64,000 nucleotides of DNA, taken from an uncultured Methanobrevibacter sp. GTDB taxonomy: Archaea > Methanobacteriota > Methanobacteria > Methanobacteriales > Methanobacteriaceae. Positions 3,970-64,000 of the stretch are shown here, piece after piece (positions within the stretch are counted from its first letter, which is position 1; each line of letters begins with the position of its first letter). Below the pieces are notes generated by a model. That model did not search any database. It worked only from the letters and a program-made list of their open reading frames with translations, and was not told the origin of the DNA. The stretch covers positions 1 through 64,000 of the forward strand of contig NZ_CAMJCX010000003.1 of the NCBI RefSeq assembly GCF_946404245.1, read 5' to 3'. Made by a program: the position numbers and the translations under genes.

Positions 3970-4842
3970 TTGAATAGTGAACCTTCCCAATCCCTATCTA
4001 AAGTAACAAAAAATATCCTGAATCAGTATGGGATTAAGTTAAATAAAAATCTTGGTCAGAATTACTTGATTGACAAGAATAAAAGAGACCAGATAATCAA
4101 CTTCGCAAATCTCAGCAAAGAAGATACTGTACTGGAAATAGGAACTGGGATAGGCACATTAACTATTGAACTTGCCAAAAGAGCTGGAAAAGTAATAGCT
4201 ATTGAACAGGATTCCAATATAGCCAAAATATTAAGCCAAAGGCTTGAAGACGAAAATATAGATAATGTAGAGTTAATAAATGACGATGCCTTAAATGTTG
4301 ATTTCCCGAAATTCAACAAGATTGTCTCAAACCTACCTTATCAAATCTCATCACCAATTACCTTTAAATTTTTAAACTATGATTTTGATTTGGCGATTCT
4401 GATGTATCAGAAAGAATTTGCCAGACGGATGAACGGTGCGGTGGGCAGCAAGGACTATTCCCGATTGTCTGCAATGCTTTATTTTAAATGCAATGTTGAA
4501 ACAATGACTGACGTCAGCTCAGAAAGCTTCATACCAAAACCGAAAATCGATTCTTCAGTTGTGAAATTAACACCAAAGGAAAATAAGATTTCACAAGGGG
4601 ACTTTAAAGTTTATTCAAATTTTACAAAAGCCTTGTTCCAGCATAGAAACAAAAAAATCCGAAACGCTTTAATTGACTCCAGACACATTATTTGCAAGCT
4701 CGATAAGAAAGAAATGAAAGAGAAAATCAACAATATTGACTCCGAAGAGATTAATGAATATCTAAAGAAAAGGGTAATTGCGATTGAGCCCGAAGAGATA
4801 CTGTTTTTATCTAAAGAGTTGAATTCCATCTTAAATGAGTAG
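3970..4842 (+). CDS. ksgA: 16S rRNA dimethyladenosine transferase (RsmA/KsgA/Dim1)
   Basis: LGQNYLIDKN, VLEIGTGIGTLT, VSNLPYQISSP motifs; TTG start. Confidence 0.95.
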   Translation: MNSEPSQSLSKVTKNILNQYGIKLNKNLGQNYLIDKNKRDQIINFANLSKEDTVLEIGTGIGTLTIELAKRAGKVIAIEQDSNIAKILSQRLEDENIDNVELINDDALNVDFPKFNKIVSNLPYQISSPITFKFLNYDFDLAILMYQKEFARRMNGAVGSKDYSRLSAMLYFKCNVETMTDVSSESFIPKPKIDSSVVKLTPKENKISQGDFKVYSNFTKALFQHRNKKIRNALIDSRHIICKLDKKEMKEKINNIDSEEINEYLKKRVIAIEPEEILFLSKELNSILNE

Positions 4843-4847
4843 ATATT

Positions 4848-5432
4848 ATGCCTGATTTTATATTGAATACTGATGATAATGTTTATATTCCCGCAGAAGA
4901 TAGCTATCTGCTAGCTGAAAATCTTGAAATAAAAGAGGGGCAAAGTGTTTTGGAAATCGGAACCGGATCAGGAATCGTTGCGATGTATGCCTCAAGGCTA
5001 ACCGACAGGATTACAGTGACAGACATCAACTTTGATGCATGCGAGCTTGCGCGCAAAAACTTTGAGGCCAACAATATTGAAAACATTGAAATTTTATTTG
5101 GAAATCTGTTCGAGCCTGTTAAAAATAGAAAGTTTGACGTGATTTTATTTAATACTCCATATCTACCTACCGAAGAAGGTGATGTTATTGACAGCAATTT
5201 AAATTATGCATTTGACGGTGGATTAGATGGTAGGAAAGTTATCGATTTATTTTTAAATGAAGTGGGAAATCATTTAAATGATGGAGGAATTGTGCAGATG
5301 ATTCAGTCTTCATTTTCAGACAATGATTTGACATTGTCAAGACTGGATGAATTAGGATTTATAGCCGAAATAAAAGCCAAGGAACATTTCTTTTTTGAAG
5401 ACATAACATTAATCAATGCTTATAAAATATAG
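4848..5432 (+). CDS. HemK/PrmC-related class I SAM methyltransferase
   Basis: VLEIGTGSGIVAMYAS and NTPYLP (NPPY-like) motifs; follows ksgA. Confidence 0.9.
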   Translation: MPDFILNTDDNVYIPAEDSYLLAENLEIKEGQSVLEIGTGSGIVAMYASRLTDRITVTDINFDACELARKNFEANNIENIEILFGNLFEPVKNRKFDVILFNTPYLPTEEGDVIDSNLNYAFDGGLDGRKVIDLFLNEVGNHLNDGGIVQMIQSSFSDNDLTLSRLDELGFIAEIKAKEHFFFEDITLINAYKI

Positions 5433-5445
5433 AGGTGAAATTAAC

Positions 5446-5604
5446 ATGAACAGTGGAATGAGATCAATTATAATAGGAGTTATCTTTTTAATCGTTGCAG
5501 TCGTATTTCTTACAATAACAACAAAATATTCCTATTTGGGAATACTTCTTATAATAATCGCATTGCTAATGATGGTTACAGGTTTTGTTAGAAAAAATAA
5601 TTAA
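5446..5604 (+). CDS. Small two-helix membrane protein
   Basis: GAGGTGA RBS then ATG at 5446; almost entirely hydrophobic 52-aa product. Confidence 0.55.
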   Translation: MNSGMRSIIIGVIFLIVAVVFLTITTKYSYLGILLIIIALLMMVTGFVRKNN

Positions 5605-5611
5605 GGGAGAA

Positions 5612-6472
5612 TTAGAATTCTCCATCGAAAACAAGCTCAGCAGGGCCTTTCATGAAGGCTCCAAGAGCATCTTCTTTTTCATAGACATTAAAGTTTAAGT
5701 CACCGCCAGGCAAGTGAAGCAATATTTCATCATCAAATAAGCCTAGCTTGTATCCAGAAATAGCTGTGGAAGTTGCGCCTGTACCGCATGCGAGTGTTAC
5801 GCCGGCACCCCTTTCCCAGGTAATCATTTTACCTTCGTTTTTGGAAATGACCTCTACGAAATGCACATTGATCTTTTCAGGGAAAACTTCATGTGCTTCA
5901 ATAGCAGGGCCGTATTTGTTAATGTCTACATCATCAACGTCATCGACAAAGATGATTGCGTGAGGGTTTCCGACACTGATTGCAGTTACATTGAATGTTG
6001 TGTCCAGTACTTCCAGCTCACCATCCAAGAATTCTTCCTTATCGGAAGTCATTGGAATTTCAGGAGTTTTAAATGTTGACAGACCCATATCTACCTTGAA
6101 CAGTACAGGTTCATCATTTTCCAATGTGATTTCAATGGTTTTTATTCCAGCCCTTGTCTCTACAGTCATTTTTTCCTGTTTTAAGATGCCTTTTCTGTAT
6201 ACGAAATCACCGAAACATCTTATACCGTTTCCGCACATTTCAGCTTCGCTTCCGTCAGGATTGAACATTCTGTATCCTATGTCTGCAACTTCAGAAGGTT
6301 CTACAAACAATACGCCATCTCCACCTACTCCGAAGTTTCTGTGGCATAATATTCTGCATGCTTCAGGTTTGTCCGCTTCAGGTATGACTTCCCCTTTTGA
6401 TTCATCGATGATTGGGAAATCGTTACCTATTCCGTGCATTTTTGAAAATTTTAATCCTTTTAAATCTACCAT
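5612..6472 (-). CDS. dapF: Diaminopimelate epimerase
   Basis: FSKMHGIGNDFPIID, MCGNGIRCFG, ERGAGVTLACGTGA motifs. Confidence 0.97.
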   Translation of the reverse strand: MVDLKGLKFSKMHGIGNDFPIIDESKGEVIPEADKPEACRILCHRNFGVGGDGVLFVEPSEVADIGYRMFNPDGSEAEMCGNGIRCFGDFVYRKGILKQEKMTVETRAGIKTIEITLENDEPVLFKVDMGLSTFKTPEIPMTSDKEEFLDGELEVLDTTFNVTAISVGNPHAIIFVDDVDDVDINKYGPAIEAHEVFPEKINVHFVEVISKNEGKMITWERGAGVTLACGTGATSTAISGYKLGLFDDEILLHLPGGDLNFNVYEKEDALGAFMKGPAELVFDGEF

Positions 6473-6481
6473 AGTATCAAC

Positions 6482-7765
6482 CTATTCAAGGTGTGGTGGA
6501 ATTCTTTGCTGTGCGTATAAGTCTTCGAAGGTTTGTCTTTCACGTACGACTTCGCATTTGCCGTCAGTTACCAATACTTCTGCTGCAAGAGGTCTTGAAT
6601 TGTAGTTTGAAGACATTGTGAATCCGTATGCTCCTGCATTCAATATACCTAAGACGTCACCTTCTTCCACATCAGGCATTGGTCTGTCACGTGCAAAGAG
6701 GTCCCCGGATTCACAGACGTTACCTGCAATGTCGACTTCCTGAGTCATTGGAGCGTCCATTTTGCTTGCATCAACGATGTGGTGGTATGAGTCATACATT
6801 GCCGGCCTTAAAAGTGTGTGGAATCCTGCATCTACACCGATGAATTTTCTGTAGCTTTGTTTTACGCTGTTAACGGTAACTAAAAGTACGCTTGCATCAG
6901 CAACAAGGTATCTTCCAGGTTCCAAATACATTGTAGGATTGCCCATGTCGAATTCTTCAAGTTTTTCTTTGAAGAGTCCTACATTGACTTCAGCAAACTT
7001 ATCCAAGTCCAGAAGTTTTTCTTCAGGAGTGTATGGAACACCTACACCTCCACCGAAATCAACGAATTCAAAGTCAATTCCGGCTTCCTGGTGCACTTTA
7101 CCTGCAATATCCATTGTGGACTCGATTGCTAATTTGAAAGGTTCTGGGTCTAAGATTCCGGAACCGATATGGGAATGCATACCAATTGGATTGAATCCTA
7201 GGTCTTTAGCCATTGTATAGACTTCAACAGCCTCATTGTCCATGATACCGAATTTACTCATTACTCCACCAGTGATACAGTGGTCGTGGTGACCTGCACC
7301 AACCATAGGGTTTACCCTGAATGATATTTTCAGTCCTTCAGGATCTACCATTTTAGCCAATCTTTTGAGTGCTGAAACGGAATCGATGTTGAGTACTGCA
7401 CCTTGGTCGTGGACAAATTTCAATTCTTCGTTTGTGATGTTGTTACCTGTGAACAATATCCTGTCACCTGAAAATCCGAGCATTCTTGAAGTGTAAACCT
7501 CTCCAGGTGAAACCGCATCAATACAGCAACCTTCAGACTCTAAGATTTTCATTACTGCAAGGTTGGTATTTGCTTTACATGCATAAAACACTTTGAAGTC
7601 AGGATAGTATTTAGAAAAAGTTGAATAAAATTTATTGTAATTTTCCCTAATCCTATTCTCGTCAATCGCATAGGTTGGAGTTCCAAATTCTTCTGCAATG
7701 TCTACTGCATCTGCACCACCGATGTCAAGGTGGTTTTTATCATTAACTTTAATATTCAAATCCAT
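6482..7765 (-). CDS. lysA: Diaminopimelate decarboxylase
   Basis: PLP fold-type III decarboxylase: [40 protein letters not shown]. Confidence 0.97.
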
Positions 7766-7893
7766 AATAAAACTCCTAAAAAGTTACATTATGTTTATAG
7801 TTATTTGCTTTAATCTATTTAAAAATATTGAAGGAAGTGATTTTTCCGATTAAAATATAAAGCAAAATAACTAAATTAACATTAGTGATTAAA

Positions 7894-8298
7894 ATGAGTA
7901 AACCCTATGGATTAACAGTTCGTGGAATAGTCAAAAACGAAAATGGTGAAATTCTAATTGTAAAAAGACATCCCAAAAGCAGAACCGACCCTGAAATGTG
8001 GGAGCTTCCGGGCGGAAAAGTGGAAAAGGGAGAGTTTTTCGCAGATGCACTCGTCCGTGAAATCAAGGAGGAAACAGACCTTGACGCTGATGTTGGAGAC
8101 TTCTGTGAAGCCATTCAAAACGATTATATGCACAAAAGAACCGTTCAAATCATGATGTATCTGGACAACGTTAATGGCCAAATAAAAATAAGCGATGAGC
8201 ACACAGACTGGATGTGGGCAGATATAGAAAAAATAAAAGAGTTAGAGATTTCAACATCTCTAAAAAAAGTATTGGAAAAGAAAAATTGGAATATCTAG
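7894..8298 (+). CDS. NUDIX hydrolase
   Basis: Nudix box GGKVEKGEFFADALVREIKEETDL. Confidence 0.9.
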   Translation: MSKPYGLTVRGIVKNENGEILIVKRHPKSRTDPEMWELPGGKVEKGEFFADALVREIKEETDLDADVGDFCEAIQNDYMHKRTVQIMMYLDNVNGQIKISDEHTDWMWADIEKIKELEISTSLKKVLEKKNWNI

Positions 8299-8999
8299 TC
8301 AATCAGCTGTTGACTTTCAATATGCAATACCCCTACCTTACATTTCGGACATATTGAAGACTCGCCCAATACCTGGAGTTCATCTCCGCAAATAGGGCAA
8401 TTTGAATAACTATCATTAATGTAAACGGTTAAATCATTGGTATGATCTTGTAAAATCTCTTTAATTAATGAATCATCCAAGTTTGCATCATTTTCCAATA
8501 TAACGAACTTATTGATTTGCTTTCCACAGTCCTGACAGAAATATCCATAGTATTTTCCGGAAAAATCGAATTTCTTGTTTTCAAAGTCTTCGCTGTAAAG
8601 GGAGTCGTCAATGAAAAACTCTCCCATTTCATCGATTGCGAATGATTTTTCCTGCCTTAGTGGAATCTCCTGGCGGCAATGGATGCAGTTTTGGAACCTG
8701 TTGTCGAAGTCTATTATCTTATGATTGTCATCCAGACTCTCAATCAATTGGATAATCTCTTCTTTTGTTATGAATCTTGATTTTCTTGTTATATGGAAAT
8801 TATAAATGTAATTATTGCAGTTATAGCAATAATACTTATAAATTCCTCCAGAAGCAAGGGAATCTGTAGCTTTCCTGGATGAGCTAACGGTTTGCATATC
8901 CACATGAATTTTCTTTTCTGCATCAACCCAAAAGATATCTGAAGAGTCAACTACCTTCATTCCGCATTCACTACATGAATATTCAGTATGGATACCCAT
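8295..8999 (-). CDS. Multi-zinc-ribbon protein of unknown function
   Basis: Several CxxC pairs (CSECGM, CYNCNN, CIHCRQ, CQDCGK, CPICGD, CPKCKV). Confidence 0.6.
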   Translation of the reverse strand: MGIHTEYSCSECGMKVVDSSDIFWVDAEKKIHVDMQTVSSSRKATDSLASGGIYKYYCYNCNNYIYNFHITRKSRFITKEEIIQLIESLDDNHKIIDFDNRFQNCIHCRQEIPLRQEKSFAIDEMGEFFIDDSLYSEDFENKKFDFSGKYYGYFCQDCGKQINKFVILENDANLDDSLIKEILQDHTNDLTVYINDSYSNCPICGDELQVLGESSICPKCKVGVLHIESQQLID

Positions 9000-11364: not shown

Positions 11365-12726
11365 CTAACTTTTTGATTTGATTCCAACAAATGAAGCAAA
11401 TACAGATGCTATACATAACACCACACAGATAATGCATGTTATTTGACAGCTGCTAATCAATAATGGATAATACTGTGCAATTATTGGAACATCACCCATT
11501 ACGAATGCAAATACAAGTGTCAATATGCCCATACTCATTGCCTGGCCTACCGTACGCATTGTTGCAACCGCCGCTGATGCAACTGAGGTGTCTTTCGCAG
11601 GAACTGAACCCATGATGACATTTGTGTTCGGAGGAGAGAACAGCCCGAAACCAATACCGTAAATAATCATTGAAACAATTAAAAATACCATTGGAGTTGC
11701 AGCATCTAAAGATGAGAACAGAAACAGTGAAACTGTTCCCAGTGCCATTCCGATAGCTGCCAGGATTTGCGGAACGAACTTGTCTGACAATCTGCCTGCA
11801 ATCGGCGCTAAAACCACTTGACACAACGGAGCGACAAGCAATATCATACCTGCAGTCTGTGAATCAAACCCTTTAATATATTGCAGGTGATAGTTAAGGA
11901 TTGTTGTTACTGCATAAGTAGCCAAATAAGCGCACAGTGATGCGAAATTGGCTGATAGAAATTTATGGTTTTTGAAAAACCTTATGTCAAAGACTGGATA
12001 TTCCTGTTTCAGTTCAATCAAACCGAATACTACAAGAATTATCAATCCAAGAACTGTCAACACTATTCCCATTTGAGTGTTTAGAATAGTGAATCCATAC
12101 ATAAAGAGCACTATTCCAATTCCATATGCAAATGATCCCTTTATGTCCAGAGGCATGTTTTCAAAGGAACTCCATTCCTCATTGATTCTAGTTAAAAGCA
12201 ATGCAAGAATTGCAAAAAGGAACGGCACTCCAAAGAGCACTACTGATCTCCACCCTAAATTATAATTCAGAATTCCGCCAATAACCGGAGACAATGACAA
12301 TCCCACATATACTCCGGTGATATTTATTCCCAGCGCCTTTCCGCGCTCTTCAGGCGGGAAGGCATTAACAATCATTGCCATGGATGTTACATTAATAAAA
12401 GACAGGGAAATTCCTAAAATAAGTCTGCATAAAAGGAACTGTTCCTGTGAAGTGACAAGCACATTGGCAATTGAAATTATGATAAACAAAACAATGCTTA
12501 TGATTGTAACTTTTTTAAGACCATATTTTCCTGAAATTTGGCCTGCTGGAACCGACAGTACAGCCACAACCAACAAAAAGATAATGGTAACCCAGTTTTG
12601 AATGATATTGCTCATTCCGAATTCAGTTGCGATGGACGGAATGACAATGGTTACCGCATTAACGGCGAATACTGTAAAGAATGATAATACCGTACAAATC
12701 AATAAAATTAAATTTTTCTGTTCCAT
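11365..12726 (-). CDS. MFS transporter (DHA2/multidrug-type)
   Basis: 12-14 hydrophobic helices; LSVPAGQISGKYGLKKV and GRLSDKF loops. Confidence 0.9.
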   Translation of the reverse strand: MEQKNLILLICTVLSFFTVFAVNAVTIVIPSIATEFGMSNIIQNWVTIIFLLVVAVLSVPAGQISGKYGLKKVTIISIVLFIIISIANVLVTSQEQFLLCRLILGISLSFINVTSMAMIVNAFPPEERGKALGINITGVYVGLSLSPVIGGILNYNLGWRSVVLFGVPFLFAILALLLTRINEEWSSFENMPLDIKGSFAYGIGIVLFMYGFTILNTQMGIVLTVLGLIILVVFGLIELKQEYPVFDIRFFKNHKFLSANFASLCAYLATYAVTTILNYHLQYIKGFDSQTAGMILLVAPLCQVVLAPIAGRLSDKFVPQILAAIGMALGTVSLFLFSSLDAATPMVFLIVSMIIYGIGFGLFSPPNTNVIMGSVPAKDTSVASAAVATMRTVGQAMSMGILTLVFAFVMGDVPIIAQYYPLLISSCQITCIICVVLCIASVFASFVGIKSKS

Positions 12727-12768
12727 TAAATGATTATATTAAAGTCATATAATATAATTCTTTTCAAA

Positions 12769-13683
12769 TTATTTCAATTTTGACATCAAACCGGATTTTC
12801 TAGCATAATGGAATAAATAAAGCTGCACATAACCCGCATTTTTGCCAAACTCCTCCATTCCGAATTCACGGACTTTGGCAACACTAATGTCTTTTCCATC
12901 AAAATACAGGTGAGAAACAATTCTTTTTATCCAAACATCTGAAGGAAATGCTTCCCTGAAGTTAAATCCGTATAACAAAATGCAGTCGGCAACTTTCGGA
13001 CCTACACCAGGAACCTTCAATATGCTTTCAAAAGCTTCATCATAGCTCATTTTTGAAATGTCGTGAAGGTCCATTTCATCTGTAAAAAGCTCGCTTGCCT
13101 TTCTCATGTATGGTGCTCTATATCCCACGCCGCAATTTTTAAGATTATTAGTACAGCTTTCAATATCTGAAATATCTGACAAATCAGATTCCTCTTCATC
13201 GTCCAAGTACACATTTAATAAATCGTTGCTTTGAGGAAATGTATAGTAATCCCCATGTTGATTTCCCCAATTCTGCTTTATCTGGGAAATTGATTTTGTC
13301 CACCTTTTAATGGAATTGTTAGCAGAGCATATTGATGAGATAATGCACTCAAAAGGATCAGGTGCCAAAAAGAGTCTCAAGCCATTGCAGAATTTGGACA
13401 TCTCGGAAAGCTCGGCGTGATTGCCCAAATATTTATAAAAATTATCCAAATCAAAATCCAAGTCAAAAATATAGCTTAATTTTGAAACGGCTTCATCCTG
13501 AGAGATGTCCCCTTCAAAATCAAAATCAAAAAATTCGCCTGATTGCCTTACATTGAAAATTACAGGTTTGCCATCAACATTGACAACATTAGAAAAAGTA
13601 CCGTCGACTTCCATCCAAGGAGGCTGTGAAGTCTGACCTGACAATTGTGTCAGTTCCAAGTCAATAGGTGTTTTGATAATCAT
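12769..13683 (-). CDS. OGG/AlkA-type HhH-GPD DNA glycosylase
   Basis: [20 protein letters not shown]...[11 protein letters not shown] helix-hairpin-helix plus catalytic Asp. Confidence 0.9.
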
Positions 13684-14504
13684 AAGCGGACAGCCACATT
13701 ATTCTCTTTGAGGTATTCCTTTACGGTACCTATTGAATATTGGTTAAAATGAAATATGCTTGCTGCAAGAGCTGCTGAAACGTCAGTCTTTTCAAACACT
13801 TCAAGAATGTGTTTCGGTTCTCCAACACCGCCGCTTGCTATAACCGGAATGTCAACCGCATCATTGATTGTCTTGTTCAGTTCAATGTCATATCCGTTTT
13901 GGGTTCCATCTCCATCCATACTTGTAAGCAATATCTCTCCCGCTCCACGTTCCTGACATTCCACTGCCCATTGGATTGCGTCAATACCAGTGAATTCACG
14001 TCCTCCGTAAATGCTTGTATCAAACCAGCAGTAACCCTTTTCAGTTTCAATGACAGTTTTATCCGGAGCATCGTCTGGATGGTCAACATATCTTCTTTTT
14101 GCATCGATTCCGATTACCACCGCCTGGGATCCTACAACTTTTGAAGCATCTGTCAACAATTGAGGATTCTTGATGGCCGCAGTATTTGTTGAGCATTTAT
14201 CAGCGCCTGCCCTAAGCATTTTAATGTAATCGTCGACCTTTCTTATTCCTCCACCTACACATATCGGCATAAAAACGTTTTCTGTGAGTCTGTCAATAAC
14301 ATCTGCCATTGTTGCACGGCGTTCATGTGATGCAGTGATGTCCAATACAACAACTTCGTCTGCTCCTTCCTCATAATATCTTGTTGCAAGGTCTACAGGG
14401 TTACCCGCATATTTTATTTCCTTAAATTCGACACCCTTAACAACTCTACCTTCTGGAACCTGCAAATCACAATCTAGACAAGGAATAATTCTTTTAGTCA
14501 ACAT
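13680..14504 (-). CDS. hisF: Imidazole glycerol phosphate synthase, cyclase subunit
   Basis: [45 protein letters not shown]; internal Met chosen as start. Confidence 0.96.
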
Positions 14505-54430: not shown

Positions 54431-57400
54431 TCATAATATTGATTCCCTAAACTGGAAACTAAATACTGATCCTTTTTTAATTAAATAATTGAGGATTTTT
54501 AAAAATTGATTATATTTCATATTATTAGTTTTAACTACCTTCCAATTTTTTATAACATATCTTTTGACATATAATTCCAAATATTCTTTTGTGTCATCAT
54601 CCAAAGGTTCTTCCACTAATTTAGAACCATCAATGAGATTGCAAATCCAATTTATACCCTCATCAATAAATAAATCATCAATAATTACTTTTGATATTAC
54701 TCTTAAAATTTCCATGAATCTTAAATCATTTGAAATATTACTGTAAAAAAGAATAGCTTGCCTTTCCTGTTTAATATCGCTTAAGTCATATTTAAAAGTA
54801 AAAGGTTTTAATAAATATGCTGAAATCGTGCTTCTATTGATTTCAGAAGGTCTATAAGAATCAACTATTTTTTTATAAAACAAATTCCAAACATTCCAAA
54901 ATTTACTAGAATTTAATCTCATATCAACAGATATGAATGATTCAAAAAATAAAGCAGAATCTCTAGAAAATTTAAAAGAATTAATAAAAGGATTTATGTA
55001 TTCTAGAATATTTTCCCTAGATAAAACAAAAAATGCATATCTTTCTAAAAAATTTCTTTTAATATTTAAAAAATTAGCAGTATTTATTTCAGAAGCATAT
55101 TCAAAGAGTTGATTAGAATAGACGCTAATAATTTCTTTAACTATATTTAAGTATTCATTTTCATCAGTATCAAATGGTATTAATTGAAAAATAATATTTA
55201 AATCTTCTAAATTCCAATTAGTTAATACAATTTCATTTTCTTTTTCTATTTTAAATATCTGATTTTCATATTCATTTACAAATTTATGAACTGCACAAAT
55301 ATATTTTTCATGAGCACTATGTACCCATTTAATATCATCATGAATATTTTTAAAATGAGGCTTAAAGTAAATAAAATTAGATATTAATTTATTTAAATCT
55401 TCATCCAAAATACCAAAATTTCTTATTGAATAAATTACTAAATCATAACCTCTATTAAAATTATCCAAGCGATTACTATTAAACAAAAAGATTAACATTA
55501 TAAATAAAATTCCATCTTTTTCGTCAGAATGTAATTTATATAAACACATTAATGAATTGAATACATGGACTATATTTGAATCCCATCTAAGATTATAATT
55601 TTCACTAAAAATATATGACATATAATCAACAATTATATTTTCACAGTATTTCAATTCCTCATCATTTAATTCATTAAAATAAAATTTTATTAAAACTGAA
55701 GCAAGTGGAATCAATGGATATTCAACAAAAAATAAATCATTTTCCCCAGATTCCATTTCTTGAGCAATATTTTTCAAATTATTGAATATTAATTTTGGAT
55801 TATTATCAAACTTGGAAGATTCCATATTTTGATTATTTAACTTATTACATGCCCAAATAATTAAATCATTATATTTGAATTTTGAATCCATCTCTTTTTG
55901 GAAATTTTCGTTATCTTCTTTTAAATCCTGTGGCAAATCCACAGTTAACATGAATTGTTCAACTTCAGAACTTTCATCTTCAATTTTCAATAATTTATGC
56001 TTTTTTAAATCAATTTGATGAATCAATAACCTATAATCAGATTCTTCTTTAATGACTAATTGTTGATATGTATCTTCATGAATTTTAATCATTTGATTAA
56101 GAATTTCACTCCTATTTTCAACATCTTTATCAAAATCGTCGATTCCCATTTGATAATGTAAAAAACAGTCCCGCAATGTCCTTTTCCTGCAAATTAAATT
56201 ACAGGATTCTTTACGTTCATTAATAAATATTTTAGGAGTGCTCAGATAAGAAAGATTAATTAAACTTTTTGCTTGACCTTCCATTGAAAATCTATTCAAA
56301 TCATAGAAAAATAAATCTAAAGACGAAAATAATATTTTTGCAACATCAAAAAGTTCATTAGGAAATTCAAGTACAATACTTGTAACTACAGCAGTTAATG
56401 ATGCAGAATAAGAATTTGATAAAATTTTCTTTAATAATTCTTCCAAATAATCAAAATTCTCTTTATTTCCTTCATCTAATAAGAATTTTTCTAATGCCAT
56501 ATGTATTGAAATTAATAAATCTGGAACAATAGCTGTTGTGCCCCTATATGCTTGCCATAAATGATCATTAATCAATTGTTTATAAATTTCATCTTCAATG
56601 ACAATCTCTATTTCGTATAATTTATTGGAAAATGTGCCCCACATTGAATCTTTACCATCATTGCAAGATCCATAATTCTTAACTGATTTGTTGACAAAAT
56701 CTACTATAAAGTCGATTGTTTCATTAGGATGTTCTTTTAATAACTGAAGAATAGGAGTTTGATAGGGATTACTAAGAGAATTTAAATCTAAACTATTTGA
56801 TATCCCAAATTTAATATTATTATCCATATCCCAATATTTTTCATCTGAATAATCTTTAAACCAAAATAAATTTAAAAAATCGAATATTATATTAGGACTC
56901 AATTTGAAAATGGGGGATGCATTCATTGTTAACATTTTTTTAGATAAATCATAATAGGGGTTTATTCTAGAAACCCATTTATTTTCTACAATCTTTTTTA
57001 ATATATCTTCCATCTCTTCTTGAATTGAAAGAGAACCATTCAAAATAACATTAATAATCTTTTGTTTATCATCAGAACTATAACTATCTACGTCATTTTC
57101 AATTTTATCATACATATTGAGTGCTATTAATGAAGATTTCCTTGTTGTTTCGCCTTCAAAATTATTGGAATTCCAATCATTTAATAAATCAATAAATAAT
57201 CTCACATCTTCAATCTGGAATAAATTCTGATTATCATATAAAAAATCTATACAATTTATCCAATTTTTTAGGGGCTCAAAACTTGTAAAAATAAATTCAA
57301 TATCATTATTTGTAATCTCCCTAACTAATGGACTATCTTTTACATATGCAATTCTTAGCCAAAAAATAATTTTTTCTAAAATAAATTTATCAAATAAAAT

Positions 57401-59059
57401 ATTATCAGCATATTCTTCAAAAAAATACTTAGAATATTTAGAACCCAAAATTGCAATCAAAATATCATCAAGGTTAGATTCATCATTGTCTCGCATAAAT
57501 AAATAATCTAAAAACATGTTTGCATCAATTGCATCATCTTTCAGTTTATTTGAAAACCATCTTCTAAATGATTTGCGAATTAACAAAGAATCAGGTAATC
57601 TATTAAAGAAATCAGAAATATCACCCATCTCTGAGAAAGCATTATCAATTAATTTTTCAAGAGCCAATTCTTCGAATATATCCTGAGTAATGAAATATCT
57701 GCCAATATTTTCATTATAAACTATAATCTCATCAGATTGTAATGCACTAAATGCATCATCACATTCAAAACTATAATCCTGATTTTTATTAATTATATCC
57801 TTAACAAATTTTAAAAAACATTTTTCTCTTTTAATGTGAATATTATTTTTTTTAAAAGTGCTGTTTTTTATTTTTATTTCCCATATCTTATTTTTAAACT
57901 CTGATACTGAATTCGAATTATAAATATCTGGATTTAAAAATAAGTTTAAATAAAATAATCTACATAACAACTGAATCAATGATTTATCTTCTGGCAAATG
58001 AAACTGATAATCTTCAGACAAGGATCTTAGTTCATCCACAGTTAGAATATCCACTTTTAACTCAGCAATATTCTTTAAATCATATATTTCCATAAGCAAT
58101 AATTTTAAATCATTTACATAATCTGGTCGAGTTGTGAAAATCACTTTCCAATTAAAATCAAATAATGAATGTAATAAATTTTTAAATGCATCCAAATTTT
58201 CCAAATAAGCTAATTTTTCTGCAGAATCAATAACAAAGATTTTTTCAGGAAAATCATTGTAAAATTCTTGAAAATTATTTAAATTATAATTGCCAAAGTT
58301 ATTGAAAAACTGTTGTATGTTTGACAAATCAAATTCTGTCGATTTAAAAATAAACAATGGCATTTCAAATTCATCTTTAAAATTTTTTATTAATGCTGAC
58401 TTGCCCGATCCTCCTTCACCACTTATTATGAGTGCATTATTGTCATTTAAAATTTCTTTAATTTCAATAAGTTGGTCATCTCTATTAATTTTAATAGGAG
58501 TTTCATTGAAGTGAATCTCATCTTTAATATAATCTAATGATAACTTACCTTTATCTTTAATATTATCAATAAATTGAAAAATACTATCATCTAAACTAAA
58601 AAATTCCTTTTTTATATATTCATATTCTTCATTTGATAAAATTATCTCAAAGTGACTTGGAAAAATAAATTCTAATTCGATATTTAAATCTTTAGCCAAC
58701 TGATAAATTTCCTTAAGATATTTTGGCATGTTATTTTCTTCATTATAATTTGCACCAAGGTCTTTGTTAGTATAAAATAATAATTTATCTAAATTATAGG
58801 ATTCATCTGAACCACTTAAAGTTTTTATAATCTCATCCTTACTTTCCCCCAATGGTTTTTCAAAAAATTTAGCTTGAAACCCGATAATTTTACCATCATA
58901 TTCAATTGGTTCATTTTCTATTGCTTTTTGATTTTTATATCTTAAAATTCCTTTTGATTGATTAAAACGTTTACAGAATAAAATATAAGCTAATTCTTCA
59001 AATTTTTCATTGACACGTCCTTCAAATTTCGCTTCAAATTGTTTCCAATTTAAACTCAT
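54431..59059 (-). CDS. Large putative defence NTPase (1542 aa): N-terminal PD-(D/E)xK/Mrr-like + STAND/NACHT-like P-loop + long helical C-terminus
   Basis: FEELAYILFCKRF...IEYDGKIIGFQAKFF nuclease-like core; Walker A ISGEGGSGKSALIK; IFVIDSAEKL Walker-B-like; VIFTTRPDYV. Confidence 0.7.
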   Translation of the reverse strand: MSLNWKQFEAKFEGRVNEKFEELAYILFCKRFNQSKGILRYKNQKAIENEPIEYDGKIIGFQAKFFEKPLGESKDEIIKTLSGSDESYNLDKLLFYTNKDLGANYNEENNMPKYLKEIYQLAKDLNIELEFIFPSHFEIILSNEEYEYIKKEFFSLDDSIFQFIDNIKDKGKLSLDYIKDEIHFNETPIKINRDDQLIEIKEILNDNNALIISGEGGSGKSALIKNFKDEFEMPLFIFKSTEFDLSNIQQFFNNFGNYNLNNFQEFYNDFPEKIFVIDSAEKLAYLENLDAFKNLLHSLFDFNWKVIFTTRPDYVNDLKLLLMEIYDLKNIAELKVDILTVDELRSLSEDYQFHLPEDKSLIQLLCRLFYLNLFLNPDIYNSNSVSEFKNKIWEIKIKNSTFKKNNIHIKREKCFLKFVKDIINKNQDYSFECDDAFSALQSDEIIVYNENIGRYFITQDIFEELALEKLIDNAFSEMGDISDFFNRLPDSLLIRKSFRRWFSNKLKDDAIDANMFLDYLFMRDNDESNLDDILIAILGSKYSKYFFEEYADNILFDKFILEKIIFWLRIAYVKDSPLVREITNNDIEFIFTSFEPLKNWINCIDFLYDNQNLFQIEDVRLFIDLLNDWNSNNFEGETTRKSSLIALNMYDKIENDVDSYSSDDKQKIINVILNGSLSIQEEMEDILKKIVENKWVSRINPYYDLSKKMLTMNASPIFKLSPNIIFDFLNLFWFKDYSDEKYWDMDNNIKFGISNSLDLNSLSNPYQTPILQLLKEHPNETIDFIVDFVNKSVKNYGSCNDGKDSMWGTFSNKLYEIEIVIEDEIYKQLINDHLWQAYRGTTAIVPDLLISIHMALEKFLLDEGNKENFDYLEELLKKILSNSYSASLTAVVTSIVLEFPNELFDVAKILFSSLDLFFYDLNRFSMEGQAKSLINLSYLSTPKIFINERKESCNLICRKRTLRDCFLHYQMGIDDFDKDVENRSEILNQMIKIHEDTYQQLVIKEESDYRLLIHQIDLKKHKLLKIEDESSEVEQFMLTVDLPQDLKEDNENFQKEMDSKFKYNDLIIWACNKLNNQNMESSKFDNNPKLIFNNLKNIAQEMESGENDLFFVEYPLIPLASVLIKFYFNELNDEELKYCENIIVDYMSYIFSENYNLRWDSNIVHVFNSLMCLYKLHSDEKDGILFIMLIFLFNSNRLDNFNRGYDLVIYSIRNFGILDEDLNKLISNFIYFKPHFKNIHDDIKWVHSAHEKYICAVHKFVNEYENQIFKIEKENEIVLTNWNLEDLNIIFQLIPFDTDENEYLNIVKEIISVYSNQLFEYASEINTANFLNIKRNFLERYAFFVLSRENILEYINPFINSFKFSRDSALFFESFISVDMRLNSSKFWNVWNLFYKKIVDSYRPSEINRSTISAYLLKPFTFKYDLSDIKQERQAILFYSNISNDLRFMEILRVISKVIIDDLFIDEGINWICNLIDGSKLVEEPLDDDTKEYLELYVKRYVIKNWKVVKTNNMKYNQFLKILNYLIKKGSVFSFQFRESIL

Positions 59060-59131
59060 AATATCCCTTATTAATATTATTTTTTTACCTTGAAAATTTA
59101 ATATAAATCAATTATCCTTTTACATCTGAAT

Positions 59132-61351
59132 TTAATTAATTTTTTTAAATTCGACACCATTGCAATTAGGACAAGGGGGAAGTGCATCATTTGAATCATC
59201 AAGCATTATTTCCTGATTACAATTAATACAAATATATGTTCCTACACCTGGTTTTTGACCAGATTGAAAAGTGAAATAATCTTCATCAATCTGTTTAATT
59301 AAAGAAGCACATATTTCCTTTTCATTATCATCTAATGATTCATTATTACAAACTTCAACGTATTTACTTCTTAAATCATCTATGCTTTCAAAATATTTCA
59401 CCATTGATTTTAAGTTAAATTTTTGAACAATTTCAGATGGTGAATCTGCATGTATTGTTGTAGAGTTAATGTTTCTAAATCCTCTTGCAAAACGCAAAGC
59501 ATTTTTACCTTCAGAAATAAATTCCTTAACTCTTTTAACTACATCAATTTCGCTGTCCCACAATTCCCAACTATCAAGAATAAATTCCAAATCTAAACTA
59601 TCCCATAATTTATCAGTTTCATCCCATTTTCTGATTTTCAAAACCATCATATCTTCAAGTTTTTCCAAATCATTTTCATCAATTAAAGCTTCAGAAACAT
59701 CTTTCCTATCATTCTCATAAGTAAATCTATTATAAATAAAATCTTGGTCTGATAAAATTTCAATAGCTACATACAAACTGTTTTCAGAATTATCAATAGC
59801 ATTTTGTAATACGTCAAATCTCTCAGAGTTATTATCGTACTTTTTAAGTAAATCATCTAAGATTCGGGATAAATAAACTTTTTTATCAAAAAACGTGTTA
59901 AGTGGAACATGTAATTGGTCTCCAATATCAATTAATGAATCTATAAAATAATGTGCATTTTCTTTTGGAATATCTCTCATACGATTTATAATTATGTCAA
60001 AAAGGTCTTTTGTTTGATTATTTCTATCATGTTCTAAAAACATTTCAGAAATCTTTTCTACATCATCTAACTTAAATAAATCATCAATTGAAGTAGCACT
60101 TAAATCCTCAGCTTCTAAGTTTAATGTGAAATAATTATAAAAGAATTCAGTAGTGCAAATTCTAAAATTGTATTTCCAATCGCGATAAGAATCTTCTAAA
60201 TCAATATTTCGATAATACATTCTAATTCTAGGGAATAACTTTAATAAAATATGGTAAATTTCATCTTCAGACAATTTAGAATGTAACCCAATAATCTCTT
60301 GAATTTTGTTTTTATTATCCTCTTTAATATCATCTTTTTGATTTTCAGTAGAAACTAAAAATAAATCTGGATTGTCCTTAATCTTATTATAAATCTTATG
60401 TTCAAACAATTGCACGGCCAAAATCAACATGAAATCATTGATATTAACATCATCCTTAAAAACTGAAAAATAAAATGTTATGATATTGATATATCTATAT
60501 AAATCCCTTAGATTATCAAAAAATAGTCTTAAATACGAATAGATATCAAAAAAGTCCTTTTGATAAGTTTCATCAACATCACGATACTTTTTATAAAAAT
60601 CATCCAAATAAAATGTAACTAATTTATCTAATTGAGACGCCCTGATTTCAGGTACAACAATAGGAATCTGAATAATCTTTTCTAAAAACATATCAGGATT
60701 ATAAACTTTTAAATTTTTAAGTGATCCTACAACAGCATCTTTATCAAATGATAAAATATAAACTACATGAGGAAAATCAGCTAATGATTTAACAAGCATC
60801 ATAATTTGTTTAACTTCATCATCAGATAACCTATCAATATCATCAATAATAATTATAACTTTCTTTTTAAGATTTTTAAAATCATCGGAAATTTTATTTT
60901 TAAGACTTAATAATGTTTCTTCATCACTTAACGAATTATTAACTTCTGGATTAATACTTATTGAACCTAAACCAAAATTAAGGCTAAATGAAGTCATGTT
61001 AATTAAAGATTTGCCTAATTTTTTAAGATTATCTGTGTTTACATAATCTGTAAAATCTTTTCCAGAACTATTAACTAAAATATCAAAAAATTGGAATAAT
61101 AAGTTATTATTATTTGAAAAATACCATGGATTAAAATGAATAACAATATTATTACTATCATTATTCTTCCAATAATTTTTAACCATGTTAATAATTGAAG
61201 TTTTTCCAGAACCCCATTTTCCCATTAAAGAAATTGTTAAACAACTTTCCTTTTTATAATTTGAAATAGCTTGAGCTAATGATTCTGCAAATTCCCTTCT
61301 ATTTAATTTATCATCATCTAACAAAGAAATAGGATTTTCCTCAATGAACAT
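59132..61351 (-). CDS. KAP-family P-loop NTPase with C-terminal zinc ribbon
   Basis: LTISLMGKWGSGKTSIINMVKNYW, VIIIIDDIDRLSDDEVKQIM, C-terminal CINCNQE...CPNCNG. Confidence 0.87.
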   Translation of the reverse strand: MFIEENPISLLDDDKLNRREFAESLAQAISNYKKESCLTISLMGKWGSGKTSIINMVKNYWKNNDSNNIVIHFNPWYFSNNNNLLFQFFDILVNSSGKDFTDYVNTDNLKKLGKSLINMTSFSLNFGLGSISINPEVNNSLSDEETLLSLKNKISDDFKNLKKKVIIIIDDIDRLSDDEVKQIMMLVKSLADFPHVVYILSFDKDAVVGSLKNLKVYNPDMFLEKIIQIPIVVPEIRASQLDKLVTFYLDDFYKKYRDVDETYQKDFFDIYSYLRLFFDNLRDLYRYINIITFYFSVFKDDVNINDFMLILAVQLFEHKIYNKIKDNPDLFLVSTENQKDDIKEDNKNKIQEIIGLHSKLSEDEIYHILLKLFPRIRMYYRNIDLEDSYRDWKYNFRICTTEFFYNYFTLNLEAEDLSATSIDDLFKLDDVEKISEMFLEHDRNNQTKDLFDIIINRMRDIPKENAHYFIDSLIDIGDQLHVPLNTFFDKKVYLSRILDDLLKKYDNNSERFDVLQNAIDNSENSLYVAIEILSDQDFIYNRFTYENDRKDVSEALIDENDLEKLEDMMVLKIRKWDETDKLWDSLDLEFILDSWELWDSEIDVVKRVKEFISEGKNALRFARGFRNINSTTIHADSPSEIVQKFNLKSMVKYFESIDDLRSKYVEVCNNESLDDNEKEICASLIKQIDEDYFTFQSGQKPGVGTYICINCNQEIMLDDSNDALPPCPNCNGVEFKKIN

Positions 61352-61569
61352 GAAACACCAAATTAAACCATATTAATAAATAATTATAAAATTATAATTA
61401 TATAAATTTAATTAAAATCATATCCATCAAACACATTTAATAATCAAAAATATTAAAAAAATGACTAATTAAAATAATAGTTTGATAAATATTATGCTAA
61501 ATTATAAAAAGAAAAATCAATTAAAATACCCATCAAAATACCCATCAAAAATTCATGATGTCCATCATT

Positions 61570-63024
61570 TTAATAATCTGGAGATGAGAAATAAACATTT
61601 TTACCCTTTTTATTTCTTTTAACTAAATTAAGTTTTAATAATTTTGAAAAATCTCTCTCAGCAGTAGGTTTAGATTTACCAAACATTTTAATATGGTCTT
61701 CATAAGACATTGAAACATTATCATTAGTAATTATGGTTAAAATTTCAATTTGACGTGAGTTTAATCCCAAATCTTTAAGATTAATTATATTTGTTCCACC
61801 AACAGCTCGGGACAAATCATCATCAGTTCCTTTAAATACTACTTTAAATGAATCTTTCCCCTCGCTAAACTGAGGTTCTTCAAGACCAAAACTTTTCATT
61901 TCATCAATCATTTGTGGAATGCCTCTACCAATATGTTCCATATAATTAGTCATGTAAAACATTTCACAAATTCTTTCATTTCTATGACCTATGCCTTCAT
62001 CATTTTTAATATCTTCAATTGACAAATTATTTATAAGCTTCCCAGGGCTAATAACTTCGATACGATTATCATATATATAAAATTCAATGAAACTAGATGA
62101 AATTTCATAATTTCTATGAGCAAGTGCATTAATGATAGCTTCACGAATCGCTCTAATTGGATACTCATCAACATTCACACGACTAACCTCATCAATGAAA
62201 AAACCAGAACGAGTATTTCTTTTATAAAATCTTTCAAATTCATTCAATAAAATTAAAAGAGTACTACTTGAATCAACACGATCAATAGCATCAAATTTAC
62301 TTATACCTTTAAATCTGACCATTTTAATTTCATGTGCTAAAAATTTAGTAACATCCCTAGCAAAAAATAATGCTCCTGCAACATTTAAATGAAAAATACC
62401 ATTAATCTCTTCACCAGCACCAATACGTTGCAATGAATAAGATTTATTATCTACATTTCTTAATTTTTTATAAGAATCATCATCTTTTAACAAATCAAAA
62501 AATAAATTATATGCCTCATCATCAACATCATCAATTGTGGATTCATAAATAATTTTTTTATCATAGTTTTCATTATCTTTTTGACTATCTGATAAAAATT
62601 TGACCAAACTTTTTCTAATTTCACTAATTAACTCATTTTCATCCTTAAAAGAAGAATGTTTATTATTAGGTTCTATTTTTGATAAAAATTTCTTATTTTC
62701 AGCATCCATTTCTTCGACTTCTTTAATATAAAAAAATGAGTGTTCATTTGAAGAATGGAATGCATCATATTCTTCTTCAGTTGCAGATAATCCTGATTCT
62801 TTAATATTACCATAATGAGAACCAATGAGCCCAATGTAAATATCAGATTGCCGTATCTCTTCAAAATAAGTGGCTTCAGGCGATGAACCATATGATGGAG
62901 AATTTTCAAATATAAACACTTCAAAAAAAGATTTTAAGAAAAAATCTTCCTCAAATTGTTTTTTGATAAATTGTCTCTCATTAGCAAATTCTGTTTGATT
63001 ACTACTGATGAAAACCTTAAACAT
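61570..63024 (-). CDS. DUF4062 + GHKL-type HATPase (HATPase_c_4) + winged-helix protein
   Basis: MFKVFISSNQTEFANERQFIKK...SDIYIGLIGSHYG (DUF4062); IREAIINALAHRNYE...VISPGKL; C-terminal wHTH. Confidence 0.82.
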   Translation of the reverse strand: MFKVFISSNQTEFANERQFIKKQFEEDFFLKSFFEVFIFENSPSYGSSPEATYFEEIRQSDIYIGLIGSHYGNIKESGLSATEEEYDAFHSSNEHSFFYIKEVEEMDAENKKFLSKIEPNNKHSSFKDENELISEIRKSLVKFLSDSQKDNENYDKKIIYESTIDDVDDEAYNLFFDLLKDDDSYKKLRNVDNKSYSLQRIGAGEEINGIFHLNVAGALFFARDVTKFLAHEIKMVRFKGISKFDAIDRVDSSSTLLILLNEFERFYKRNTRSGFFIDEVSRVNVDEYPIRAIREAIINALAHRNYEISSSFIEFYIYDNRIEVISPGKLINNLSIEDIKNDEGIGHRNERICEMFYMTNYMEHIGRGIPQMIDEMKSFGLEEPQFSEGKDSFKVVFKGTDDDLSRAVGGTNIINLKDLGLNSRQIEILTIITNDNVSMSYEDHIKMFGKSKPTAERDFSKLLKLNLVKRNKKGKNVYFSSPDY

Positions 63025-63317
63025 AATACTTCTCCATGAGTTTTAAAATATTATCTCAAATATAACTATCGTTTTCATCAAATATAAACTTAACAGTTGA
63101 AAAAAAGAAATTTAAAAATAATTTTTTATATTAATAACAATATTGAAGTTTAAATCGAATATTAAAATAAAAAAATAGCTTAAATAAGTTTAATCCATAA
63201 CATCCAATATAATAATATCACCACATCTATTGAAATTTTAAGATGATAAATTTAATGATGAAATTATCCAAAAATTGAATAAAATTGGAAAGTAATTAAA
63301 GTAACTACTTCTAAATA

Positions 63318-63557
63318 TTATCCAATATAATGTATTTCTGCAAGAACATCATTTCTTAAATCAAAATATTCTCCAGCAATACAACATTCATACCCATCAA
63401 TTAGAATTTTAGCATTTTTACTAATCGTGATGCTTCTAAAATTTTTAAATAAAATTCTTATTTCTTTGATATGTACTGGATGTAATTTAAGACTTTCAAA
63501 TGTACTGTATACAGAATTTAATTCTTGGATTCTATTAATAATTGTTATTTCTACCAT
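63318..63557 (-). CDS. Small hypothetical protein (79 aa)
   Basis: Open frame in the same orientation as the defence-like genes; no family recognised. Confidence 0.45.
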   Translation of the reverse strand: MVEITIINRIQELNSVYSTFESLKLHPVHIKEIRILFKNFRSITISKNAKILIDGYECCIAGEYFDLRNDVLAEIHYIG

Positions 63558-63611
63558 ATTATCACAATAAATACTGTCTTTTTGTATTTATAAAACCATT
63601 TATTCAAAAAG

Positions 63612-63974
63612 TTATGCTGAAGATACTTGCAAATAAATTTGCACAACTATTAAAATAAGATTTGCAATACTTACAAACAACATTACCCTAGTCAATGAAT
63701 ATGTTGATTTATTTAACTCAAAACTAGACTTATTCAACTCTGCAGATTCCTCTTCAGATCTTTTAACATAATTAAATAATTTAACATTGCTTATTATTTG
63801 TGAAGTCTCTGCAGGAGAACAGTAATTTGGAGATTCATAGGATCTTGGAATATGAGATGCACTAAACTGGCTTTTAGTGAGTTCATGTTTAAATGTGCAT
63901 TTTCCCCGAATATTATCTAATTGTTTACAATATCTATAAGCAGGACAAAATCCGTAACCTGTAATAGTTTCCAT
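63612..63974 (-). CDS. Small Cys-containing protein with C-terminal TM helix
   Basis: Four Cys near N-terminus; C-terminal VMLFVSIANLILIVVQIYLQV. Confidence 0.5.
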   Translation of the reverse strand: METITGYGFCPAYRYCKQLDNIRGKCTFKHELTKSQFSASHIPRSYESPNYCSPAETSQIISNVKLFNYVKRSEEESAELNKSSFELNKSTYSLTRVMLFVSIANLILIVVQIYLQVSSA

Positions 63975-64000
63975 AAAATTAGATTCCTCTAGTCTTTGTT

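What the first reader, a model, noticed from the sequence alone, without database searches (positions are those of the whole stretch)
54431..61351. Candidate two-gene defence system: nuclease-STAND giant protein encoded 72 bp downstream of a KAP NTPase
Both genes run on the minus strand with only 72 bp between the KAP stop and the 1542-aa start, so co-transcription is likely. The 1542-aa protein has a PD-(D/E)xK/Mrr-like N-terminus, a P-loop core and about 1000 residues of helical C-terminus, the architecture seen in STAND anti-phage sensors such as Avs. KAP NTPases are also found in defence contexts. I do not recognise this pairing as a named system, least of all in a methanogen.
Basis: partly seen in the sequence, partly recalled or inferred. 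Interest (0 to 1): 0.8.

Follow-up and report, generated by a model that had tools for sequence, protein, structure and literature searches.

The report
Known Avs4 beside a PifA-like gene
The giant protein is a methanogen version of the already known anti-virus sensor-nuclease Avs4, and the gene beside it is a relative of the known phage-exclusion protein PifA; the two sit together by cargo swapping in one mobile defence island and do not form a new two-gene system.

Summary
The reading as an unnamed two-gene system does not hold. The 1542-aa protein is Avs4 end to end (PADLOC 1129 bits; solved EcAvs4 8dgf, E=8e-197 over residues 3-1542; top structural hit of the modelled N-terminus). The KAP protein is PifA-like (PADLOC E=1e-71 over 4-682), with an added C-terminal zinc ribbon. 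The pairing is not conserved: none of 79 Avs4 loci from many phyla has a PifA-like gene in its flanks (up to 10 kb). Sister genome G057 carries the same island, 99% identical from the pifA stop outward, with 8 kb of other cargo in place of avs4. In 139 family genomes the two genes are not associated (p=0.16). Most likely Avs4 works alone, sensing a viral portal and cutting DNA (inferred from EcAvs4, untested here), and PifA is a separate exclusion module. Novelty is limited to a divergent methanogen Avs4 clade. By-product: a G094 gene fusing a virus portal to the last ~23 codons of an avs4.

The parts
54431..59059 (-). avs4, 1542 aa: Mrr-like PD-(D/E)xK nuclease (about 1-140; E48, Q62, K64), STAND NTPase (about 190-345; Walker A GEGGSGKS at 214, Walker B FVIDSAE at 275), C-terminal helical sensor region (about 400-1542)
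   Evidence: PADLOC PDLC02169 Avs4 1129.5 bits over 3-1542; NCBIfam NF041815 Avs4 1276 bits, below its 1500 naming cut-off; PDB 8dgf E=8e-197; alignment A1; AF2 model of 1-430 with 8dgf as top hit, E=5.7e-36; motif positions
59060..59131 (-). 72-bp gap between pifA stop and avs4 start, with a TATA-like box (TTTATATTA); avs4 may have its own promoter
   Evidence: sequence and comparison of upstream regions; suggestive only
59132..61351 (-). pifA-like gene, 739 aa: KAP P-loop NTPase (18-294; Walker A GKWGSGKT at 44), helical C-terminal half, C-terminal zinc ribbon (about 691-736)
   Evidence: Pfam PF07693 4.3e-45 and DUF1451 zinc ribbon 2.8e-7; PADLOC PDLC02361 PifA 1.3e-71 over 4-682; zinc ribbon found only in this gene and its closest relatives
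61570..63024 (-). 484-aa DUF4062 + HATPase_c_4 (RecG-C/AlbA-type) + winged-helix protein, probably another defence gene; a steadier neighbour of this pifA than avs4 is
   Evidence: Pfam; kept beside pifA in G057 (100%), G073 (92%) and, as a 40% homologue, G086
63612..64000 (-). 170-aa Cys-rich, probably membrane-anchored protein of unknown function (runs past the window end); the gene of a tyrosine recombinase follows on the contig at C3:64499-65212, cut by the contig end
   Evidence: ORFs of the contig end; the full-length integrase in G057 matches Phage_integrase, 2.6e-7

Best explanation
Two independent, already known kinds of antiviral gene sit side by side in an integrase-bordered, cargo-swapping defence island of a Methanobacteriaceae archaeon (Methanobrevibacter-like). 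The 1542-aa protein is a divergent Avs4. Its helical C-terminus most likely recognises the portal protein of an infecting tailed virus; binding drives ATP-dependent STAND oligomerisation, which brings the N-terminal Mrr-like nuclease domains together, and these cut viral and host DNA so that the cell dies or stops before virus release. The PifA-like KAP NTPase is a separate exclusion module with its own trigger. Shown here: identity, full architecture, intact motifs, island context, non-conserved pairing. Inferred from EcAvs4 and from PifA of the F plasmid: ligand, oligomerisation, DNA cleavage, outcome.
For: End-to-end Avs4 matches by PADLOC, NCBIfam and PDB; intact nuclease and Walker motifs in alignments of 8 and 26 homologues; modelled N-terminus matches 8dgf far above anything else; a supported methanogen Avs4 clade (4 rows, SH-aLRT 100) in the 80-row tree. 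PifA match over 4-682. Cargo swap: G057 is 99.2% identical from window 59132 to 64000, its left flank matches the window's adhesin gene (77%), and between them it has 8.2 kb of other genes (RhuM, PIN, DUF4062-NACHT) instead of avs4. G073 has the same DUF4062-NACHT protein beside pifA; G086 has a second pifA there. No PifA-like KAP within the fetched flanks (up to 10 kb) of 79 Avs4 loci, with a positive control that works. The five other family genomes with full-length Avs4 have no strong KAP hit, except G136 on another contig. Literature: Avs1-4 nuclease effectors cleave phage and host DNA on recognising terminase or portal (PMC12931631).
Against: NCBIfam score lies below the equivalog cut-off (1276 against 1500), with about 32-42% identity to other Avs4, so the ligand could have changed. 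Same-strand arrangement with a 72-bp gap allows co-transcription in this one genome. The PifA match is remote in sequence: an annotated plasmid pifA matches only residues 5-409 at 22%. No activity was tested.
Confidence: 0.9

Rival explanations
1. PifA and Avs4 form a co-transcribed two-gene defence system in which the KAP NTPase assists or regulates the Avs4 nuclease.
For: Same strand, 72-bp gap. No terminator search of the gap was made.
Against: Pairing seen once only: 0 of 79 Avs4 loci across many phyla have a PifA-like neighbour; the same pifA lives without avs4 in G057, G073 and G086; Avs4 lives without a strong KAP in G013, G037, G039 and G041; genome-level association p=0.16. Homologous avs4 genes are annotated and named as single-gene systems on E. 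coli plasmids.
Confidence: 0.04
2. Avs4 here is intact in sequence but has drifted to sense another viral protein (terminase, a capsid protein or an archaeal-virus-specific protein) rather than the portal.
For: One of the three longest end branches of the tree and about 32-35% full-length identity to other Avs4; Avs relatives are reported to sense terminase (PMC12931631); portals of Methanobacteriales viruses are so different that neither Pfam nor PHROGs names the one found here.
Against: The C-terminal sensor region aligns without large loss to EcAvs4, which was solved bound to a portal, and Avs proteins recognise fold more than sequence (general knowledge of the Avs literature, not tested).
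Confidence: 0.2
3. The avs4 gene is a decaying or silent passenger of the island.
For: Avs4 is patchy in the family: 6 of 139 genomes have it full length, one of these with an in-frame TGA, and others only fragments (G086, second G013 copy, G094).
Against: The window copy is a single open frame of 1542 codons with all motifs intact and no stop.
Confidence: 0.06

Closest known systems
Avs4 (AVAST type 4; EcAvs4, PDB 8dgf bound to phage PhiV-1 portal)
   Same: Mrr-like nuclease + STAND + long C-terminal sensor, aligned over residues 3-1542; intact catalytic and Walker residues; single-gene size and order of domains.
   Different: About 32% identity to E. coli Avs4; NCBIfam score below its naming cut-off; belongs to a divergent clade with other Methanobacteriaceae copies; ligand untested.
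PifA (KAP NTPase of the F plasmid that excludes phage T7)
   Same: KAP P-loop NTPase at the N-terminus and similarity to the PADLOC PifA model over 4-682.
   Different: Remote sequence (an annotated plasmid pifA: 22% over 5-409); extra C-terminal zinc ribbon with two CxxC pairs; archaeal chromosome island; no evidence on trigger.
DUF4062/TIR-like defence proteins such as KpSwz (PDB 10wc)
   Same: The 484-aa neighbour has an N-terminal DUF4062 (Pfam 1.3e-17), with a weak match to KpSwz (E=0.011).
   Different: Followed by a HATPase_c_4 domain and a winged helix; relatives of this protein match in 53 of 139 family genomes; not assigned to a named system by PADLOC here.

Membership tests
Avs4 | N-terminal Mrr-type PD-(D/E)xK nuclease with intact active-site residues | tested here: met
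   E48, P51, Q62 and K64 conserved in 26 homologues; model matches 8dgf.
Avs4 | Central STAND P-loop NTPase | tested here: met
   nSTAND3 27.8 bits against cut-off 27.2; Walker A at 214, Walker B at 275.
Avs4 | Full-length match including the C-terminal sensor region | tested here: met
   PADLOC 3-1542 of the protein to 4-1570 of the model; 8dgf 3-1542.
Avs4 | NCBIfam equivalog cut-off (1500 bits), a naming threshold and not a mechanistic feature | tested here: not met
   1276.2 bits. The other full-length methanogen Avs4 of the family score 1165-2270 on the PADLOC model, the window copy 1129.
Avs4 | Activation by viral portal protein, oligomerisation and DNA cleavage | not testable with these tools
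   Needs biochemistry; known for EcAvs4 (8dgf; PMC12931631).
PifA | KAP NTPase with PifA-type C-terminal half | tested here: met
   PADLOC PifA 1.3e-71 over 4-682.
PifA | Orthology to F-plasmid PifA | tested here: inconclusive
   Annotated plasmid pifA matches only the N-terminal half at 22%.
PifA | Exclusion of T7-like phage, triggered by viral proteins | not testable with these tools
   Function of F PifA from PMC8594841.
   0 of 79 Avs4 loci; same pifA without avs4 in G057, G073, G086.

The most novel reading that the evidence does not exclude
In this island PifA and Avs4 act together, or the zinc-ribbon PifA and the DUF4062-HATPase gene form a core module that arms whichever large STAND sensor is plugged in downstream (Avs4 here, a DUF4062-NACHT protein in G057 and G073), so that the island is a slot for exchangeable sensors.
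Probability: 0.05. Interest if true: 0.6.

Novelty: new member of a known kind. Interest (0 to 1): 0.2.

Why it matters
It removes a candidate 'new system' from the list and shows that Avs4, a sensor of tailed-virus proteins, occurs as a distinct clade in Methanobrevibacter-type methanogens, whose tailed viruses are known. That makes a cross-domain test possible: does an archaeal Avs4 recognise the portals of archaeal tailed viruses such as vir323? The bp-level cargo swap between sister genomes is a clean example of why gene adjacency in a defence island should not be read as a shared system.

Tried and rejected
Single-protein scan of genome contigs with the window Avs4 found no relative; the alignment-based scan did. 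PifA relatives in viral contigs: none. Avs4 in annotated phage records: none; one IMG/VR contig encodes an Avs4, not followed. AlphaFold of PifA from a single sequence was too poor to use (pLDDT 40). Rejected: a portal-mimic function of the Avs4 C-terminus, suggested by the 29-residue match with a portal ORF in G094; other portals of that family (433 aa) lack the tail and the Avs4 family has it, so the match comes from a recombination junction with short shared sequence. Literature search for an Avs-PifA pairing found nothing, but the library lacks most subscription papers; the original Avs papers were not found in it.

Full report
Observation. The stretch from about 54.4 kb to the window end is AT-rich (24% GC for the two genes, 34% for window 1-52000), which suggests acquired DNA.

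What the large protein is. It matches the PADLOC Avs4 model with 1129.5 bits over residues 3-1542, the NCBIfam Avs4 model with 1276 bits (below that model's naming cut-off of 1500, so it is divergent), and the solved E. coli Avs4 bound to a phage portal, 8dgf, with E=8e-197 over residues 3-1542. Alignment with seven further Avs4 proteins and with the N-termini of 25 others shows that E48, P51, Q62 and K64 of the nuclease and the Walker motifs are intact (positions). An AlphaFold2 model of residues 1-430 (pLDDT 86) has 8dgf as its best PDB match at E=5.7e-36; the next matches are general AAA+ proteins at about 1e-9. In a quick tree of 80 Avs4 rows, the window copy groups with three other copies from the same archaeal family (SH-aLRT 100 for the four), apart from the Methanosarcina, Methanomicrobia and one further Methanobacteriaceae copy; its end branch is long, so the exact place is unsure.

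What the KAP protein is. It matches the PADLOC PifA model over 4-682 (E=1.3e-71) and Pfam KAP_NTPase (4.3e-45). Residues 691-736 are a zinc ribbon that lies beyond the part matched to the PifA model; among the related sequences examined only the closest ones (G057, G086) carry it, while small ORFs of about 50 aa that match it are scattered over the family. An annotated plasmid pifA matches only residues 5-409 at 22%, so 'PifA-like' is as far as the evidence goes.

Are the two a unit? Three tests say no. First, sister genomes: G057 is 99.2% identical to the window from 59132 (the pifA stop codon) to the window end, and its left flank matches the window's adhesin gene at 77%, but between them lie 8.2 kb with a RhuM-family protein, a PIN-like protein and a 1403-aa DUF4062-NACHT protein on the opposite strand. 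G073 has the same DUF4062-NACHT protein beside pifA, and G086 has a second pifA copy there. In G057 the island ends in a tyrosine recombinase, and the same recombinase lies at the end of the window's contig. Second, from the Avs4 side: 79 Avs4 loci from many bacterial phyla and several archaea, with up to 10 kb of flank on each side, contain no match to a profile of 21 PifA-family sequences, although the profile recovers the expected PifA genes in the control set. Some of those contigs are short, so this is not a full 10 kb in every case. Third, across 139 genomes of the family, 17 carry a PifA-like gene, 6 a full-length Avs4 and 2 both (window and G136, where they are on different contigs); Fisher p=0.16. 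Many of these genomes are drafts.

Mechanism. Avs1-4 nucleases cleave phage and host DNA on recognising terminase or portal proteins (PMC12931631), and EcAvs4 was solved with a portal (8dgf). The window protein has every sequence element needed for the same action. PifA of the F plasmid is reported to sense T7 proteins (sensitivity depends on Gp1.2, with some role for Gp10) and to trigger death by membrane depolarisation (PMC8594841). I therefore take the two as separate modules. Ligand, oligomerisation, cleavage and cell fate are inferred; nothing here tests them.

Novelty. AVAST systems are already reported in rumen archaea (5.6% of their systems; PMC11834463), and full-length Avs4 is present in five other genomes of this family. 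The finding is a new, divergent member of a known kind.

A side observation. In G094 a 391-aa ORF consists of the first ~369 residues of a tailed-virus portal (88% identical to the annotated portal of Caudoviricetes sp. vir323, a Methanobacteriales virus) joined to the last ~23 codons of an avs4 gene, at a point where both share a short stretch. Other portals of this family are 433 aa and lack that tail, and the tail belongs to Avs4. The simplest reading is a recombination or deletion joint between a provirus portal gene and an avs4; that the partners are the sensor and its known type of ligand is probably coincidence. An assembly error in this draft genome is not excluded. The portal family itself is common (matches in 42 of 139 genomes, one of them only the Avs4 tail in the window genome) and is the obvious ligand to test.

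Noticed in passing
L059 (G094:C23:10000-28000) 12554-13729 -: 391-aa ORF: truncated portal of a vir323-like virus fused to the last ~23 codons of an avs4, joined at a short shared sequence; a PifA-like gene lies just downstream.
   Followed up: yes
L065 5768-9412 - (G100) and L066 237-3860 + (G076): 1214- and 1207-aa proteins with an Avs4-type nuclease and P-loop N-terminus (about 32-35% to residues 1-250) but an unrelated C-terminus: possible Avs variants with another sensor.
   Followed up: partly
window 61570-63024 -: 484-aa DUF4062 + HATPase_c_4 + winged-helix protein, with matches in 53 of 139 family genomes; kept beside pifA and the integrase in G057 and G073.
   Followed up: partly
L058 (G057:C14:96000-115000) 4619-8830 +: 1403-aa DUF4062-NACHT protein with a weak Ada-type zinc-binding match at its end, occupying the place of avs4 in the sister island; likely another STAND defence gene.
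   Followed up: partly
window 59132-59281 - (PifA residues ~691-739): Zinc ribbon fused to the C-terminus of this PifA clade only; similar stand-alone ~50-aa ORFs occur elsewhere in the family.
   Followed up: partly
L007/L069 (G039:C1:1674029-1678675): Avs4 copy interrupted by one in-frame TGA; G086 and G013 also hold C-terminal Avs4 fragments, so avs4 seems to decay often in this family.
   Followed up: no
L195 (IMGVR_UViG_2808606715_000001): An Avs4 (43% to the query) on a contig classed as viral; could be a provirus-borne defence gene or host flank.
   Followed up: no
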